Shown here: positions 1 to 6,274 of the stretch, piece by piece
Position numbering within the stretch: position 1 is the stretch's first letter
Layout: each line of letters begins with the position of its first letter
NCBI GenBank assembly: GCA_040756715.1
Contig: JBFLYE010000178.1
Span: 1-7,806 of the forward strand
Direction: 5' to 3'
DNA length: 7,806 bases
DNA from: JBFLYE01 sp040756715 [NCBI: bacterium]
Lineage (GTDB): Bacteria; UBA9089; UBA9088
Notes under the pieces: generated by a model
What the model was told of the DNA's origin: nothing
Seen by the model: only the letters and a program-made list of their open reading frames with translations
The model's database searches: none
Translations under genes and position numbers: made by a program

Positions 1-126
1 TGAAGGTTTAAGTTTTATAAAATTTTTTCCCTTTTAATTCAAAATTCAACATTCAAAATTCATAATTTTATAAAGTTTTCCTTAAGATTATCTAAACACA
101 TACATTTTGTAAAGCGTTATGGAATT
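1..126. repeat. Left arm of a 126-bp perfect inverted repeat
   Basis: Every base from 1 to 126 is the complement of its partner in 6149-6274 (positions sum to 6275). Pairing breaks at 127 against 6148. The arm begins at the first base of the window, so its outer limit is unknown and 126 bp is a minimum. It is very A+T-rich and contains several copies of the decamer ATTCAAAATT or close variants. On the minus strand it includes the last ten sense codons and the TAG of the Cys-rich gene at 92-316, followed by noncoding sequence. Confidence 0.97.
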
Positions 127-316: not shown

Positions 317-628
317 CTATATTATCCTTATAGGATAAGCTGTAATCCAAATTTCTATTTGTTTAAATCGCTCCTTTAAGATTTCTTTATAGCTTTTAAA
401 GAAATCTTCTGTTTTTTGTGTATCTTGTGTATCAATAACCACCCTTAACAACTCATCCTCATATTCTTTTTCCTCATAAACCCACCAGCCAAAGAATTGA
501 GGTTCTATAGTAATAGCGCCAAATCTATCTATAAGCTCTCTCTTTGTTAGCTGAATCTTCTCATATTCAACATAGGTTCCATCGTTATACTTGAGAGGCA
601 ACAGGATTTCGTATCTTACTGCAGACAT
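317..628 (-). CDS. Conserved hypothetical small protein, 103 aa (second gene of cassette)
   Basis: The function is unknown. The protein begins MSAVRYEILLPLKYNDG and ends KQIEIWITAYPIRII. It alternates predicted strands and helices (strand RYEILLPL, helix LTKRELIDRFG, strand DELLRVVIDT, helix with KEILKERF, final strand IEIWITAYPI), which would suit a small ferredoxin-like alpha/beta fold; that is inference. From memory, proteins with this RYEILLPL...ND start and IEIWITAYPI end recur in diverse bacteria and archaea without an assigned role. I chose ATG 628-626 because AGAAGGA sits 7 nt upstream. An in-frame TTG at 634-632 has that motif too close. The first 44 nt overlap the 3' end of the 73-aa gene in another frame, and the stop abuts the ATG of the Cys-rich gene, so the three are probably cotranscribed and translationally coupled. 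Confidence 0.8.
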   Translation of the reverse strand: MSAVRYEILLPLKYNDGTYVEYEKIQLTKRELIDRFGAITIEPQFFGWWVYEEKEYEDELLRVVIDTQDTQKTEDFFKSYKEILKERFKQIEIWITAYPIRII

Positions 629-806
629 AATCAAATCCTTCTCTTTCGAGAATCTTATATTCTATCTTTAAATCGTCTAATATTCTGAGGCTTTTTTCAG
701 AAATCTCATATACATCATTCGGAAGGCAAATAAGCTTTATTCTTTTAGCCAATTCACAAAAACCCTTCGCATCCTCTTCTTTGTTCTTAAACCTAATTTT
801 TACCAT
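585..806 (-). CDS. Conserved hypothetical small protein, 73 aa (first gene of cassette)
   Basis: The function is unknown. The 73-residue product starts MVKIRFKNKEEDAKGF and ends FDYVCSKIRNPVASQV; predicted short strands (VKIRFK, IKLICLP, VYEIS, IEYKIL) alternate with helices. It has no signal peptide, membrane segment or recognised motif. The closing RNP-containing tail is encoded by the same DNA as the first residues of the downstream 103-aa protein, so both termini are constrained together. The start is ATG 806-804, with no good Shine-Dalgarno. A convincing promoter ends only 11 nt upstream of the ATG, so the message may be almost leaderless. It heads the three-gene cassette and lies 37 nt downstream of uvrB, so some readthrough from uvrB is also possible. 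Confidence 0.78.
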   Translation of the reverse strand: MVKIRFKNKEEDAKGFCELAKRIKLICLPNDVYEISEKSLRILDDLKIEYKILEREGFDYVCSKIRNPVASQV

Positions 807-817
807 CTCTATAAATC

Positions 818-847
818 ATTTTATCTTAAATTCTTTTGTTATGTCAA
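818..847 (-). promoter_or_regulatory. Sigma-70-type promoter of the small-gene cassette
   Basis: On the minus strand an exact TTGACA (847-842) is followed after 18 bp by TAAAAT (823-818), five of six matches to TATAAT and preceded by GA. The -35 box overlaps the uvrB stop codon (846-844). Transcription would start about 7 nt past the -10 box, leaving roughly a 4-5 nt leader before ATG 806. The match was read by eye; A+T-rich DNA throws up such boxes by chance, but the exact TTGACA and good spacing favour it. Confidence 0.6.
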
Positions 848-2808
848 GAATTTCTCCTTTTTCTTAAAACCCTTTTTATCTCAAATATTTTATCCCTAAA
901 TAAAGCTGCCTTTTCGTATTCAAGGGTTTCTGCGGCTTTTTTCATTTCCTCTTCAAGAAATTCAATCATTGTCCAGGGGTCGCTTGATTCTATCCCAATC
1001 TCTATTTTTTCATCCCCTGCCCTTCTCTTTACCTCAAGGTAATCGGTAATATTCTTTTCTATGGTCTTTGGTGTAATATTATTTATTCTGTTATATTCTA
1101 TTTGCTTCTTTCTCCTTCTTTCTGTCTCATCCATTGCCTTTTTCATAGAATTGGTTATCCTATCTGCATACATAATCACACAGCCATCAATATTCCTTGC
1201 ACACCTTCCAAATACCTGGATTAGGGATGTTTCCGACCTTAAAAATCCCTCCTTGTCTGCATCCAACACAGCAACCAAAGAAACCTCGGGAAGGTCTAAT
1301 CCCTCCCTTAATAGATTTATCCCAACCAAGACATCAAAGTTTCCCAGCCTTAAATCCTGTAATATCTCAACCCTCTTTAATGACTCTATATCCGAATGGA
1401 GATACCTGACCATTAAACCTTTCCTTGCAAGGTAATCTGCCAGGTCTTCGGCTAGCCTCTTAGTTATGGTTGTAACGAGAACCCGCTGATTTTTCTCGGT
1501 TCTTTTTGTAATCTCCTGGATTAAGTTTTCTATTTGATTCTCTTCGGGTCTAACTTCTACCCTTGGGTCAACAATCCCGGTAGGTCGGACAATCTGCTCA
1601 ACCACCTGCTGGCTTAAAGAAAGCTCATAGGAATCTGGTGTAGCAGAGATGTATATCTTCTGATGGGTTAATGATAAAAATTCATCAAACCTTAAAGGTC
1701 TATTGTCATAGGCAGAGGGAAGCCTAAATCCATAGTCAATAAGGGCTTTTTTTCTTGCTTTATCTCCCTCATACATTCCCTTAAGCTGGGGAATGGTTAC
1801 ATGGGATTCATCAATAATGACAAGAAAATCATCGGGGAAATAATCAATTAAGGTATATGGTCGTTCCCCTGGCTTTCTTCCTGAAAGGTGCCTTGAATAA
1901 TTTTCAATGCCATGGCAATAACCCGTCTCCCTTAACATTTCTATGTCAAATCTGGTTCTCTCTTCTATCCTCTGTGCCTCAATAAGCTTATTCCTATCTT
2001 TAAAATATTTTATCCGCTCAACAAGCTCATCGGAAATTGTCCTTAATGCCTGCCTTAATCTCTCTGCATTGGTAAGAAAATGCTTTGCCGGATAGATAAC
2101 CACACTATTTGTCTCTCTTTTCTCCTTTGTCAAAGGGTCAATTATCAAAATCTTTTCTATTTCATCGCCAAAAAGGGAAAGCCTGATTATATCTTCAGCT
2201 TGTGAAGGAAATAGATCAATTACCTCACCCTTTACCCTGAATTCCCCCTTTTGGGGAGAAGCATTGTTTCTTTTATATTGCAGCCTTACCAACTCGGAAA
2301 GAAACCCATCCCTCTCTATAACATCACCACAAGAAAGCTTGATGATGGATTCATGCCAGTCAGAGGGAGAACCAAGGTTATAGATGCAGGATACCGAGGC
2401 TACCACGATAACATCCTTCCTTGTCATCAAAGAAGCCGCTGCCTCAAGCCTTAATCTATCAATTTCATCGTTTATGCTGCAATCCTTCTCAATGTATGTA
2501 TCGGTTGATGGAATATATGCCTCAGGCTGGTAATAGTCATAGAAGCTAATAAAATAAGAGACAGCATTTTCGGGAAATAATTCCTTAAATTCTGAATAAA
2601 GCTGGGCAGCCAATGTCTTGTTATGGGAGATAACCAAGGTTGGTTTATTAACTTGGGCAATAACATTTGCAATGGTAAATGTCTTGCCACTTCCGGTAAC
2701 ACCCAATAAAACTTGGTCTAAAAAGCCAGATTTTAACCCTTTCACAAGCCTCTCTATTGCCTTTGGCTGGTCTCCCTTGGGAGAAAAATTACTTCTTAAT
2801 ATAAACAT
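844..2808 (-). CDS. uvrB: UvrB, excinuclease ABC subunit B
   Basis: UvrB is the DNA-damage-verifying helicase-like subunit of UvrABC nucleotide excision repair. It is loaded by UvrA, opens the helix at the lesion and recruits UvrC. Visible landmarks, in approximate residues: Walker A GVTGSGKT (36-43); the damage-probing beta-hairpin YDYYQPEAYIPSTDTYIEKD (90-109); motif II DESH (332-335); ISATP (386-390); motif V GINLLREGLDLPEVSL (495-510); motif VI FGRCARN (532-538), with both arginines kept though the usual form is IGRAARN; and a C-terminal UVR domain from about 610 that contacts UvrC or UvrA. The length of 654 aa is normal for the family. The start is ATG 2808-2806, giving MFILRSNFSPKGDQPKAI, the standard N-terminus. 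There is no Shine-Dalgarno; a -10 box lies 8 nt upstream, suggesting a leaderless mRNA. It is divergent from the jag-mnmE operon. Confidence 0.98.
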   Translation of the reverse strand: MFILRSNFSPKGDQPKAIERLVKGLKSGFLDQVLLGVTGSGKTFTIANVIAQVNKPTLVISHNKTLAAQLYSEFKELFPENAVSYFISFYDYYQPEAYIPSTDTYIEKDCSINDEIDRLRLEAAASLMTRKDVIVVASVSCIYNLGSPSDWHESIIKLSCGDVIERDGFLSELVRLQYKRNNASPQKGEFRVKGEVIDLFPSQAEDIIRLSLFGDEIEKILIIDPLTKEKRETNSVVIYPAKHFLTNAERLRQALRTISDELVERIKYFKDRNKLIEAQRIEERTRFDIEMLRETGYCHGIENYSRHLSGRKPGERPYTLIDYFPDDFLVIIDESHVTIPQLKGMYEGDKARKKALIDYGFRLPSAYDNRPLRFDEFLSLTHQKIYISATPDSYELSLSQQVVEQIVRPTGIVDPRVEVRPEENQIENLIQEITKRTEKNQRVLVTTITKRLAEDLADYLARKGLMVRYLHSDIESLKRVEILQDLRLGNFDVLVGINLLREGLDLPEVSLVAVLDADKEGFLRSETSLIQVFGRCARNIDGCVIMYADRITNSMKKAMDETERRRKKQIEYNRINNITPKTIEKNITDYLEVKRRAGDEKIEIGIESSDPWTMIEFLEEEMKKAAETLEYEKAALFRDKIFEIKRVLRKRRNS

Positions 2809-2816
2809 ACATAAAG

Positions 2817-2845
2817 ATTTTAAAAGAAAGAGAAAATTCTTGCAA
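2817..2845 (-). promoter_or_regulatory. uvrB promoter (one half of a symmetric divergent pair)
   Basis: On the minus strand TTGCAA (2845-2840) is followed after 17 bp by TAAAAT (2822-2817), then 8 nt to the uvrB ATG at 2808. The -35 box is palindromic and is the same hexamer used by the opposing jag promoter. The expected transcription start falls within about 2 nt of the ATG, so the message would be leaderless. The -35 matches consensus at four of six positions and the -10 at five of six. Confidence 0.55.
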
Positions 2846-2868
2846 TTCTTATATTTTTATGATAAAAT
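2840..2868 (+). promoter_or_regulatory. jag-mnmE operon promoter (other half of the symmetric pair)
   Basis: On the plus strand TTGCAA (2840-2845) is followed after 17 bp by TAAAAT (2863-2868), within GATAAAAT, then 8 nt to the jag ATG at 2877. The geometry is identical to the uvrB side, mirrored about 2842.5. There is no Shine-Dalgarno in the 8-nt interval, so a leaderless transcript is expected. Confidence 0.55.
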
Positions 2869-2876
2869 AAAAAATT

Positions 2877-3338
2877 ATGGAAGAACTTAATGAGAAGATA
2901 ATCGCAGCACAGGCAATTACAGAGAAGATTTTAGGCTTAATGGGAATAAGTGCGAATGTCATAGCACAGAAGGAAGGGGCTAATATTGTTATAGTAATCA
3001 AGAGCAATGATGCAGGATTGTTGATTGGAAAGGATGGAAAATGCCTTAATGCCCTTCAAGAGATTGCAAGAGCAATCTTCTTTAAAAAGACAGGTTTTAA
3101 AAAAAGGTTGGTATTGGATATCAATGATTATCGCAAAAGAAGGAAGGAAAGCATTATAAAGTGTGCAAGCGAGGCGGCAAATAAGGCATTTACCACAAAG
3201 GAAGAGGTGGTAATCCCTCCCATGCCTTCTTATGAAAGATATATTGTCCATTCATTCCTCCAAAGCGATCATCGGGTAACCACAATGAGTCAGGGAGAGG
3301 GGGATAATAGATGCGTCGTGGTTATTCCGAATGCATGA
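2877..3338 (+). CDS. Jag/KhpB-like RNA-binding protein (KH and R3H domains)
   Basis: This is a cytoplasmic single-strand nucleic-acid-binding protein of the Jag (SpoIIIJ-associated)/KhpB/EloR family, linked in Firmicutes to sRNA binding and control of cell elongation. A type II KH domain spans about residues 8-80, with the binding loop GLLIGKDGK (GKDG at 51-54). An R3H domain follows (about 82-151), with the signature RYIVHSFLQSDHRV (Arg121, His125). At 153 aa it is shorter than typical Jag proteins of roughly 200 aa or more and lacks the N-terminal Jag_N domain, so it may not share the same protein partners. It heads the operon and overlaps mnmE by 8 nt. jag next to mnmE is a conserved order (rnpA-yidC-jag-mnmE), but yidC is absent here and uvrB lies divergently upstream. 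The start is ATG 2877 with no Shine-Dalgarno. Confidence 0.93.
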   Translation: MEELNEKIIAAQAITEKILGLMGISANVIAQKEGANIVIVIKSNDAGLLIGKDGKCLNALQEIARAIFFKKTGFKKRLVLDINDYRKRRKESIIKCASEAANKAFTTKEEVVIPPMPSYERYIVHSFLQSDHRVTTMSQGEGDNRCVVVIPNA

Positions 3339-4656
3339 TACAATCTGTGCCATATCAACGCCAATTGGAGAGGCAGGAATAGGAATAGTAAGAATTTCGG
3401 GAGGAGAATCGTTGAAAATTGCAAAGAGAATATTTAGGTCAAAAAATAAGCTTACCTCTCATAGATTGATCTATGGGAAGATAATTGACCCAGACTCAAA
3501 TTGCATAATTGATGAGGCTCTTCTTTGCTATATGAAGGCACCAAAAACATATACAAGGGAAGATGTGGTTGAAATAAATCTTCATTCTGGCTTTGCCGTT
3601 CTTTCTGAGGTTCTTTCTCTTGTCCTAAAAGAGGGTGCAAGGCTTGCCGAGCCAGGTGAATTTACCAAGAGGGCATTCCTAAAAGGTCGAATTGACCTTG
3701 TTCAGGCAGAGGCTGTGGAAAAGATTATCTCATCAAAGACAACCCTGGCAAGAGAAATTTCGACCCAACAGCTACAAGGCGAACTTTCTTTAAAAATAAG
3801 AAAGATAAGGGAAAATCTCCTTTCTATCCTCTCCTTAATTGAAGCAAGCCTTGATTTTGAAGAGGAGCTGGATAGAGAAAGGCTTTTTAAAGATATTTTT
3901 TCTATTAAAAAAGAGCTAAAGGGTTTCCTTGAAGGATATAGGACAGGAAAATTCCTTTCAAATTCTTGTATTGGTGTTATTATAGGAAGACCAAATGTTG
4001 GAAAGAGCTCAATTCTAAATGCCCTGATTGGCACAGATAGAGCTATTGTAACCCCCATCCCTGGAACAACAAGGGATTTGGTAAGCGAGGTAATAAATAT
4101 AAAAGGAATTCCCCTTAAAATTACGGACACAGCAGGGCTTTGTGATGCAATTGATCTAATAGAAAAGGAGGGAATAAAAAGGGCTTATAAGGCAATTGAA
4201 AATGCCGATATTGTTATTTATGTTTTAGATGGCACAGGGATTATTACGAAAGATGATATTGCTATTTTTGAAAAAATAAAGAATAAAAGCATAATCTTTA
4301 CAGTTAATAAATCAGACCTTCCCAAAAGGATTGATATAGAGGTTTTAAAGAAATATAAAAAACCCATAGTTTTTGTCTCTGCAAAGAGAAAGGAGGTCTC
4401 TTTGCTTTTGGATGAAATAGAGAAGGCTCTTTTTAGCTCATACGATGAAGCACACATCATTACAAGTATAAGGCATAAGGAGGCAATGGAGAGGTCATTA
4501 GAGCATTTAGATAGGGCAATTAGCTCAAAAGAAGATGAGGTTGTTAGCATTGAATTAAGGGATTCTATAGATGCTATATCAGAGATATTGGGCGAGAATA
4601 TAACAAATGAGGATATTTTGGATAGAATATTCTCTACATTTTGTGTGGGAAAATGA
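3331..4656 (+). CDS. mnmE: MnmE (TrmE), tRNA wobble-uridine modification GTPase
   Basis: MnmE acts with MnmG to add the (carboxymethyl)aminomethyl group at C5 of wobble uridine 34 in certain tRNAs, using methylene-tetrahydrofolate, FAD and GTP hydrolysis. The N-terminal folate-binding domain (about 1-120) has the family block EPGEFTKRAFLKGRIDL (107-123). A helical domain is split around the inserted G domain, which carries G1 GRPNVGKS (219-226), G2 PGTTRD (244-249), G3 DTAG (266-269), G4 NKSD (326-329) and G5 VSA (349-351). The C-terminus is CVGK, the conserved C(I/L/V)GK whose cysteine is required for modification. The full length of 441 aa is normal. A local difference is HSG (85-87), where many members have HGG. 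The ATG lies inside the end of jag with no Shine-Dalgarno, so translation is probably coupled. The stop overlaps the next ATG as ATGA. Confidence 0.98.
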   Translation: MHDTICAISTPIGEAGIGIVRISGGESLKIAKRIFRSKNKLTSHRLIYGKIIDPDSNCIIDEALLCYMKAPKTYTREDVVEINLHSGFAVLSEVLSLVLKEGARLAEPGEFTKRAFLKGRIDLVQAEAVEKIISSKTTLAREISTQQLQGELSLKIRKIRENLLSILSLIEASLDFEEELDRERLFKDIFSIKKELKGFLEGYRTGKFLSNSCIGVIIGRPNVGKSSILNALIGTDRAIVTPIPGTTRDLVSEVINIKGIPLKITDTAGLCDAIDLIEKEGIKRAYKAIENADIVIYVLDGTGIITKDDIAIFEKIKNKSIIFTVNKSDLPKRIDIEVLKKYKKPIVFVSAKRKEVSLLLDEIEKALFSSYDEAHIITSIRHKEAMERSLEHLDRAISSKEDEVVSIELRDSIDAISEILGENITNEDILDRIFSTFCVGK

Positions 4657-5636
4657 AGAAGGGGTATTTTTTGGGGATTCTTTTAAGTTGCCTGTTTTTA
4701 TACCTTGCCATCAGGAATGTAGAATATAAAAATGTAAGAAATGCTTTGGTATCTGCGAATTACATCTTTATCATCCCTGCAATGCTTGTGGTTATTGCCT
4801 CATTTCTTTTAAGGGCGATAAGGTGGGGATATATCCTTGAAAGCACAAAGAAGATAGGGTTTAATAGCCTCTTTGGGGTGATGATGATAGGATTTATGGT
4901 GAATAATGTGCTTCCTGCAAGGATTGGAGAATTTAGCCGGGCATATATGATGGGAAGAAAGGAAAATATATCAAAAAGCCTTTCATTTGGAACAATTGTT
5001 TTAGAGAGAATCTTTGATGGCTTTGCTCTTTTGTTCATCCTTGGTCTTTCAATGCTTCTCTCTCCATTTCCAAAATGGGTAAAGGCATTTGGTCTTATTA
5101 GCCTTTTCATATTTAGCCTCTCTATGGTTTTTATTGTCTTTTTAAGGATAAAGAGGGAATTTATGGTAAAGAAAATAGAAAATTTAGCCTCTATTTTTCA
5201 TAAAGGGTTTTCAAGTAGAATTTCCTATATCTTTGATAGATTTATTGATGGATTGGCAAGCCTTGAAAACCTTAAGCATACAGGGCTAATAATCATTTAT
5301 TCTATAATTTCCCAAATCGTCCTTGGCATAGAATTTCACCTTTTGTTCTTTTCCTTTGGGTTTAATCTTGCTTTCTATTCTCCCTATTTTATTGCATCAA
5401 TCGTTGGGCTTTCCTCAATGATTCCATCTGCCCCAGGCTATATTGGCGTATTCCAATCATTCTGTGTGGGAGGCCTTATTCTTTTTGGAATAAACAAGGA
5501 TATTGCCTTAAGCTATTCCATTGTTTGCCATATTGTTCAATATATCCCAGTGACCGCAATTGGTATTTTTTATTTTATAAATGAAAATATTCCAATTTCA
5601 AAGATAGAAGGCAGACCTTGTTTTAGAAAGCCTTAA
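4653..5636 (+). CDS. UPF0104 / LPG_synthase_TM family integral membrane protein
   Basis: This is a polytopic inner-membrane protein of the lysylphosphatidylglycerol synthase transmembrane-region family (PF03706, UPF0104), of which some members are thought to act in lipid flipping or transfer. There is no soluble aminoacyl-transferase domain, so it should not be called a full MprF. About seven or eight hydrophobic segments are visible. Family motifs: RAIRWGYIL, NNVLPARIGEFSRAY (near residues 85-99), VLERIFDGFALL, and MIPSAPGYIGVFQ in the last third. I chose ATG 4653 (327 aa), which overlaps the mnmE stop as ATGA; an in-frame TTG at 4641 would add four residues. The C-terminus after ENIPISKIE (GRPCFRKP) looks abrupt, and the neighbouring frame stays open from 5611 to a TGA at 5695, so a 3' frameshift is possible. 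The substrate is unknown. Confidence 0.88.
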   Translation: MKKGYFLGILLSCLFLYLAIRNVEYKNVRNALVSANYIFIIPAMLVVIASFLLRAIRWGYILESTKKIGFNSLFGVMMIGFMVNNVLPARIGEFSRAYMMGRKENISKSLSFGTIVLERIFDGFALLFILGLSMLLSPFPKWVKAFGLISLFIFSLSMVFIVFLRIKREFMVKKIENLASIFHKGFSSRISYIFDRFIDGLASLENLKHTGLIIIYSIISQIVLGIEFHLLFFSFGFNLAFYSPYFIASIVGLSSMIPSAPGYIGVFQSFCVGGLILFGINKDIALSYSIVCHIVQYIPVTAIGIFYFINENIPISKIEGRPCFRKP

Positions 5637-5668: not shown

Positions 5669-5920
5669 ATGAAAAGGGCGGTGTGTTTAAGATATGAGAA
5701 GAAAGAGGGTGCTCCTGTGGTTGTGGCCAAAGGACAAGGATATATTGCAGAAAAAATAATTGAAAAAGCTATGAAAAATAATATTCCCATATATACTAAC
5801 CCAAATCTAGCATCTATTCTTATGAGGGTTGAAATGGGCGAGGAGATACCAGAAATACTATATGAGGCTTGTGCAAAAGCCCTTGCCTTTGTCTTAAAAT
5901 TAGAGGAAAAAAGGAGATGA
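5669..5920 (+). CDS. FlhB C-terminal-domain-like protein (YlqH type)
   Basis: The 83-aa protein matches the cytoplasmic C-terminal domain of the FlhB/YscU export-switch family standing alone, as in B. subtilis YlqH. Diagnostic segments: RYEKKEGAPVVVAKGQGYIA (residues 9-28), IPIYTNPNLASIL, and GEEIPEILYEACAKALAFVL. It begins just after where FlhB has its NPTH self-cleavage site, so that site and the membrane part are absent. No flagellar or type III secretion genes are present, so an export role should not be assumed and the function is unknown. A perfect AAAGGAGG (5646-5653) lies 15 nt upstream of ATG 5669, a long spacing. An in-frame TAA at 5660-5662 excludes an earlier start. The gene follows the UPF0104 gene by 32 nt, and its TGA overlaps the ATG of the nine-codon stub. 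Confidence 0.88.
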   Translation: MKRAVCLRYEKKEGAPVVVAKGQGYIAEKIIEKAMKNNIPIYTNPNLASILMRVEMGEEIPEILYEACAKALAFVLKLEEKRR

Positions 5921-6148: not shown

Positions 6149-6274
6149 AATTCCATAACGCTTTACAAAATGTATGTGTTTAGATAATCTTAAGGAAAAC
6201 TTTATAAAATTATGAATTTTGAATGTTGAATTTTGAATTAAAAGGGAAAAAATTTTATAAAACTTAAACCTTCA
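6149..6274. repeat. Right arm of the 126-bp perfect inverted repeat
   Basis: This is an exact reverse complement of 1-126. In plus orientation it starts with the last ten sense codons of the Cys-rich gene and its TAG (6151-6183), with an in-frame TAA just before (6148-6150), so nothing is expressed from this fragment. The rest is A+T-rich noncoding DNA. The repeat ends where the first ATTCAAAATT run of the following hairpin arm begins. Confidence 0.97.

What the first reader, a model, noticed from the sequence alone, without database searches (positions are those of the whole stretch)
2808..2877. Exactly mirror-symmetric divergent promoter sharing one palindromic -35 box between uvrB and jag-mnmE
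TTGCAA at 2840-2845 is its own reverse complement and is placed as -35 for both directions. Each side then has 17 bp, TAAAAT, 8 nt and ATG. The pairs 2817/2868, 2822/2863 and 2808/2877 all sum to 5685. The spacers themselves are not palindromic, so the symmetry is in the architecture rather than a simple repeat. Two RNA polymerases could not occupy the shared hexamer together, so repair (uvrB) and the RNA-binding/tRNA-modification operon may be expressed in a mutually exclusive way. The exclusivity is inference; the geometry is directly visible.
Basis: partly seen in the sequence, partly recalled or inferred. Interest (0 to 1): 0.62.

Follow-up and report, generated by a model that had tools for sequence, protein, structure and literature searches.

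The report
Two opposite promoters sharing one box
A DNA-repair gene and an RNA-binding/tRNA-modification operon face away from each other and appear to start from two ordinary promoters packed so tightly that they use the same six-letter polymerase contact site; the mirror symmetry follows mostly from promoter habits of this bacterium, and whether the two really compete is untested.

Summary
The geometry is exactly as described. Each -10 box ends 8 nt before an ATG and no Shine-Dalgarno motif precedes it, so both mRNAs should be leaderless. That is a habit of this lineage: -10 boxes pile up 5-9 nt before start codons, 11-50 times background, in samples of three genomes. TTGCAA is one of its usual -35 boxes (6 of 54 leaderless-type promoters at spacer 16-18, 1 in 15 control windows), so its palindromy comes free, and 17 is the usual spacer. 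In the same-genus genome all 20 promoter letters are kept while 9 of 32 others differ (P 0.008); exact symmetry is not kept (7 nt on the jag side). Two-faced TTGCAA promoters are not in clear excess (3 of 86 matches, two orthologous sites). The genome holds two further sites of similar geometry between start codons, with TTGTCAA and TAGCAA centres; across five genomes 5 of 12 leaderless TTGTCAA promoters are two-faced (post hoc). So overlapping -35 boxes recur here. Mutually exclusive expression is unproven; alternation is more likely. Mostly ordinary, mildly interesting.

The parts
2840..2845 (.). TTGCAA, palindromic -35 hexamer shared by both promoters
   Evidence: TTGCAA at spacer 16-18 in 6 of 54 sampled leaderless-type promoters; unchanged in G001
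2863..2868 (+). TAAAAT, -10 of the jag promoter
   Evidence: unchanged in G001
2860..2861 (+). TG of an extended -10 (jag side only)
   Evidence: unchanged in G001
2817..2822 (-). TAAAAT, -10 of the uvrB promoter
   Evidence: unchanged in G001 although uvrB is broken there
2869..2876 (+). 8 nt between -10 and jag ATG; predicted start of a leaderless mRNA within it
   Evidence: start site inferred
2809..2816 (-). 8 nt between -10 and uvrB ATG; predicted start of a leaderless mRNA within it
   Evidence: start site inferred
844..2808 (-). uvrB
2877..3338 (+). jag/eloR-like, KH and R3H domains, 153 aa
3331..4656 (+). mnmE, overlaps the end of jag
4641..5636 (+). flippase-like (TIGR00374) gene, overlaps the end of mnmE

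Best explanation
A compact pair of ordinary sigma-70/sigma-A-type promoters, back to back, for two leaderless transcription units. RNA polymerase binds in either direction on the same TTGCAA as -35. Rightward it opens at TAAAAT 2863-2868, helped by an extended -10 TG, and starts just before the jag ATG; leftward it opens at TAAAAT 2822-2817 and starts at about the uvrB ATG. The ribosome starts at the 5'-terminal AUG without a Shine-Dalgarno leader. The sharing most likely arose because the jag promoter carried a -35 that reads the same on both strands, so that a neighbouring uvrB needed only a -10 on the other side. Polymerases exclude each other only while one occupies the promoter, so expression should alternate; real interference would need one direction to be strongly activated. 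Shown: geometry, its statistical context, conservation in one relative. Inferred: start sites, leaderless translation, alternation, order of events.
For: Geometry. Leaderless habit: TAWWAT 5-9 nt before the first ATG in 28 of 197 and 8 of 57 genes (two samples of this genome), 16 of 113 (G001), 10 of 62 (G002), against 2.56, 0.42, 0.96 and 0.2 expected from internal ATGs. -35: of 54 leaderless-type promoters 29 have TTGnnn at spacer 16-18 (1-10 in 15 other windows); TTGCAA 6 there, 1 in all the others together; spacer 17 in 20 of 29. Conservation in G001: 0 of 20 promoter letters changed, 9 of 32 others, P 0.008. A second copy of the jag promoter in G001, before mnmE on C20 with no uvrB beside it, keeps 37 of 40 letters rightward but 18 of 31 leftward, where the -10 reads TATAAA: the leftward face goes with uvrB. 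In G002-G004 jag has its own promoter with a Shine-Dalgarno leader, and uvrB lies on another contig (boxes read by eye).
Against: No transcript data. Conservation rests on one relative in which uvrB is broken, so its leftward box may be a relic; the C20 copy may have carried only the right half from the start. TTGCAA fits the E. coli -35 at 4 of 6. In the whole sample TTGCAA is not followed by TAWWAT at 16-18 more often than at other distances (9 of 509 sites; 3-11 in 14 other windows), and the zero control is uninformative; only near start codons does it stand out. In the G001 and G002 samples TTGCAA at 16-18 is 1 of 23 and 1 of 17, with 2 and 1 elsewhere. Gene starts come from a simple longest-ORF caller; sample A contigs came from a listing of TAWWAT-N8-ATG matches.
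Confidence: 0.78

Rival explanations
1. A polymerase-orientation toggle: because both promoters need the same -35, strong use of one shuts off the other, so repair and the jag-mnmE operon are expressed in turn.
For: Full overlap of the -35; both faces kept in G001; overlapping divergent promoters can act as a switch when strengths differ and a regulator acts (PMC4207663 passages).
Against: No regulator site was found or sought by a dedicated test; neighbourhood not kept in relatives; E. coli bidirectional promoters show no competition at basal strength (PMC12825309).
Confidence: 0.07
2. Only the jag promoter is real (extended -10); the leftward boxes are chance in A+T-rich DNA and uvrB is expressed otherwise.
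For: jag side has TG and is recognisable in G002-G004 and in the C20 copy; two-faced TTGCAA sites are about as many as chance predicts.
Against: Leftward -10 sits 8 nt before the uvrB ATG and is unchanged in G001; no other promoter room, since jag begins 68 bp away.
Confidence: 0.12
3. TTGCAA with its surroundings is a binding site of a regulator that acts on both genes.
For: Palindromic centre; TTCTTGCAA context kept in G001.
Against: The palindrome is only 6 bp; the flanks beyond it do not mirror (8 of 17); TTGCAA at the -35 position recurs before many unrelated genes.
Confidence: 0.03

Closest known systems
Bidirectional promoters of E. coli and Salmonella (PMC12825309: abstract and passages; PMC10268837: passages)
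   Same: One DNA stretch takes polymerase in two orientations because an element reads on both strands; [quoted passage not shown]
   Different: There the -10 is shared and starts lie 7-25 bp apart; here the -35 is shared, the -10 boxes are 40 bp apart and the predicted starts about 65 bp apart.
pLS20 Pr/Pc overlapping divergent promoters (PMC4207663: abstract and passages)
   Same: Overlapping divergent sigma-A promoters at which polymerase can bind only one at a time.
   Different: There -10 and -35 of one are thought to coincide with -35 and -10 of the other, strengths differ and a regulator acts; here -35 lies on -35 and no regulator is known.
-10 adjacent to ORF, leaderless expression (PMC12340547: passages; PMC3160421: abstract)
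   Same: TANNNT-like -10 a few bp before the start codon, no leader, used by many genes.
   Different: Shown there in Deinococcus-Thermus and surveyed in named bacteria; here an unnamed A+T-rich lineage, sequence evidence only; its same-genus 16S keeps the anti-Shine-Dalgarno sequence.

Membership tests
Leaderless (-10 adjacent to ORF) genes | -10 hexamer a few nt before the start codon | tested here: met
   8 nt on both sides; lineage-wide enrichment at 5-9 nt
Leaderless (-10 adjacent to ORF) genes | No Shine-Dalgarno motif before the start | tested here: met
   None in the sequence before either ATG; 0 of 5 window genes tested
Leaderless (-10 adjacent to ORF) genes | mRNA 5' end at or within a few nt of the start codon | not testable with these tools
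   Needs 5'-end mapping
Sigma-70-type promoter | -35 and -10 hexamers 16-18 bp apart | tested here: met
   9 of 12 consensus letters, spacer 17, on both strands
Bidirectional promoter in the sense of PMC10268837 | Divergent starts 7-25 bp apart with reciprocal overlap of -10 and start | tested here: not met
   -10 boxes are 40 bp apart (positions; definition)
Mutually exclusive promoter switch | Raising one direction lowers the other | not testable with these tools
   Needs in vitro transcription or dual reporters
Conserved divergent uvrB/jag pair | Adjacency kept in related genomes | tested here: not met
   uvrB beside jag in 1 of 27 jag loci, the window's own (at most 1.5 kb flank, several cut by contig ends, e.g. 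191 bp in G004) and 0 of 9 distant loci; on other contigs in G002-G004; 5' part missing in G001

The most novel reading that the evidence does not exclude
In this leaderless lineage a palindromic or nearly palindromic -35 (TTGCAA, TTGTCAA) is a recurrent core of bidirectional promoters, linking gene pairs as different as uvrB/jag, a metallophosphoesterase/zapA-like cluster, 16S rRNA/dGTPase, tRNA-Leu/ORF and groES/ORF, so that the orientation in which polymerase lands sets the balance between the two genes.
Probability: 0.15. Interest if true: 0.5.

Novelty: new variant of a known kind. Interest (0 to 1): 0.28.

Why it matters
It shows how a striking symmetry can fall out of common promoter habits, and it gives natural test constructs for a question studied so far mainly with shared -10 elements: do polymerases competing for one -35 interfere? 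The lineage-wide use of -10 boxes set against the start codon, although the ribosome keeps its anti-Shine-Dalgarno sequence, also matters for choosing start codons in such genomes.

Tried and rejected
One search showed that control to be uninformative; some searches found two similar sites in the genome and the TTGTCAA group. The exact 52-bp layout remains the only perfect match; one-mismatch and other near matches are listed there.

Organism name: the one genome-contig scan gave nine jag relatives at 31-41% identity, none close; lineage unnamed. Rfam: no match in the window at gathering thresholds. 16S: none found in G000, G003 and G004; the anti-Shine-Dalgarno sequence was read in G001, after searches had looked at the wrong strand. 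C217 near match: not between divergent starts. The five-genome DNA alignment did not line up the promoter boxes of G003 and G004; those were read by eye. The count of compact divergent pairs (9 of 52, window included, loose -10 matches) has no control. Paper searches for a shared -35 gave no clear precedent, but most subscription papers are missing, so this is no claim that none is in print. The 2021 paper on widespread divergent transcription was seen only as a phrase counted in other papers.

Full report
What is there. The window is one whole contig (C178, 7806 bp) of a 1.55-Mb, 218-contig genome, G000. The 68 bp between uvrB (-, ATG at 2808) and jag (+, ATG at 2877) hold 8 nt, ATTTTA, 17 bp, TTGCAA, 17 bp, TAAAAT, 8 nt. 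Outside the boxes the arms differ (8 of 17 and 2 of 8 letters agree). As consensus matches both are unremarkable: 9 of 12 letters, among 33 promoter-like sites where shuffles give 25.7, sd 6.4. The case must rest on context.

Leaderless starts. A -10 ending 8 nt before the ATG leaves room for a leader of only a few nt (usual -10 to start distance, recalled). I sampled 40 contigs: sample A, 20 from the listing (which can bias gap 8); sample B, 20 picked by number. TAWWAT lies 5-9 nt before the first ATG in 28 of 197 genes (A, 2.56 expected from internal ATGs), 8 of 57 (B, 0.42), 16 of 113 in G001 (same genus, 0.96) and 10 of 62 in G002 (same family, 0.2). In sample A the commonest gap is 6 (17 of the 28), not 8. 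Shine-Dalgarno-like motifs are present but sparse (28 of 197 against 9.8; 8 of 57 against 3.3). G001's 16S rRNA ends in GGATCACCTCCTTT. Whole-genome pattern counts agree: TTGACW-N16-18-TAWWAT-N5-9-ATG occurs 49, 77, 36, 44 and 32 times in G000-G004, reversed control 0 or 1 (reversed patterns are imperfect controls).

The -35. Of 54 leaderless-type promoters in the samples, 29 have TTGnnn at spacer 16-18 (1-10 in the 15 other 3-base windows), and TTGCAA occurs 6 times there and once in all other windows together. Spacer 17 is used in 20 of 29, and TTGCAA is the commonest hexamer (6; TTGACA 5). Against this, over the whole sample TTGCAA is not followed by TAWWAT at 16-18 more often than at other distances (9 of 509 sites; 3-11 in 14 other windows). 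So TTGCAA is a usual -35 before start codons, not a strong genome-wide signal. It is palindromic by nature.

Two faces. Of 51 sites with TTGCAA-N16-18-TAWWAT in G000 only the window's works both ways (52 matches); the sampled rate of far-side -10 boxes, 4 of 211, predicts 0.97. Among TTGCAA matches followed by an ATG in five genomes, 3 of 86 have a far-side ATTTTA or ATTATA at the mirror distance: the window in both directions and its G001 counterpart, hence two orthologous sites; not a clear excess over TTGACW, 2 of 238 (Fisher 0.12). Equality of spacer, gap and -10 hexamer has a probability of 0.032 for two random sampled promoters.

Similar sites. A search for two opposed -10 boxes 39-41 bp apart with an ATG 5-9 nt beyond the second gave about 36 distinct sites in G000-G004 by my count of the listings, many of them probably chance matches in coding DNA. 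In G000 three have start codons 5-9 nt outside both boxes: the window; C100:1728-1779, centre TTGTCAA (TTGTCA rightward, TTGACA leftward, offset by one), gaps 6 and 6, between a TIGR00282 metallophosphoesterase and a 59-aa ORF followed by a ZapA-like gene below cut-off; and C200:7319-7370, centre TAGCAA (TTGCTA leftward), gaps 6 and 7, with a long ORF to the left and a contig end 5 codons into the right ORF. From the sample, 13 such start-flanked pairs at distances 0-149, I would expect about 1.2 at 39-41 in the whole genome (my arithmetic). In relatives, TTGTCAA centres lie between GroES (with a leader) and an ORF (G001 C149), tRNA-Leu and an ORF (G002 C58), the 16S rRNA gene, whose match begins about 70 bp on, and a dGTPase (G002 C134), and two ORFs (G004 C155). 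A census of leaderless TTGTCAA promoters gives 12, of which 5 are two-faced; far-side -10 boxes occur 3 times at all 63 other distances. Against the sampled rate P is 2e-6, against TTGACW 2e-6. This test is post hoc: the TTGTCAA sites were noticed first. The pooled figures for the other -35 types are biased by loci, so I use whole-genome counts for them. Overlapping -35 boxes thus recur in the lineage, by a near-palindrome more than by TTGCAA.

Relatives at this locus. One same-genus, one same-family and two same-order genomes were among the 41 searched. G001 has ATTTTA-17-TTGCAA-17-TAAAAT-7-ATG before jag: 9 changes in 52 bases, none in the 20 promoter letters (P 0.008; jag third positions 74.5% identical). 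Similarity stops at the uvrB start codon; the uvrB remnant, from about codon 127-135 on, starts another contig, and both break points carry TGAATAGTTAC, facing each other (by eye). A second copy of the jag promoter in G001 lies before mnmE on C20, where only the last codons of jag remain (MVVVIPNG, stop): 37 of 40 letters agree rightward, 18 of 31 leftward, and the leftward -10 reads TATAAA. The leftward face is thus kept where uvrB was and not where it is absent, though the copy may have taken only the right half. In G002 jag faces a Der-like GTPase ORF across about 130 bp (name from similarity to the MnmE G domain and from recall). By eye, G002 jag has TTGCAT-18-TAAAAT with TG and a leader with GAGGTGAT; G003 and G004 have TTGACC and TATAAT with a GGAGG leader; G002 uvrB has TATAAT-8-GTG. 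Simplest history, inferred: an old jag promoter lost its leader in this genus, and uvrB took up its -35 from the other side.

Mechanism and verdict. Two polymerases cannot both hold TTGCAA. In E. coli, five bidirectional promoters sharing a -10 showed no competition at basal strength, but did when one direction was raised (PMC12825309); in pLS20 overlapping divergent promoters of unequal strength with a regulator are described as a switch (PMC4207663). I expect alternation here unless one side is activated. Observation confirmed, promoter reading likely, symmetry mostly explained, exclusivity unproven.

Noticed in passing
window 1-126 and 6149-6274: The first 126 bases of the contig are the exact reverse complement of 6149-6274; probably a contig end at an assembly-graph overlap inside an inverted repeat (inference). 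Part of it also occurs in G001 next to the uvrB break.
   Followed up: partly
G001 C62 (L057 1-186) and C136 (L058 1-200): uvrB of the same-genus genome lacks its first roughly 130 codons; both break points carry TGAATAGTTAC in facing orientation. The 11-mer occurs 5, 3 and 3 times in the sampled contigs of G000, G001 and G002. Repeat insertion or mis-assembly are both possible.
   Followed up: partly
G001 C20 (L108, about 17860-17940, minus strand): A near copy of the jag promoter sits directly before mnmE, with only the last codons of jag left, while jag with the other copy stands alone at a contig end (C62): the operon appears split with its promoter duplicated.
   Followed up: partly
window 2806-2812 (-): Two ATGs lie 4 nt apart: 2812 (out of frame, stop after 7 codons, by eye) and 2808 (uvrB). 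A transcript starting at 2812 would carry the wrong AUG at its 5' end.
   Followed up: no
G002:C134:2201-2263 (L139): The -10 box facing the 16S rRNA gene shares its TTGTCAA -35 region with a divergent leaderless dGTPase gene.
   Followed up: partly
G000:C70 (L082), G001 L109 and L114: Compact divergent pairs (78-83 bp) with -10 boxes right before both starts but farther apart than here; a comparison set for interference.
   Followed up: no
window 5669-5920: Stand-alone 83-aa FlhB-like C-terminal domain, below its curated cut-offs, downstream of the flippase-like gene.
   Followed up: no
window 317-634 and 585-806 (-): Two small ORFs downstream of uvrB with no NCBIfam or Pfam match at E 0.001.
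   Followed up: no
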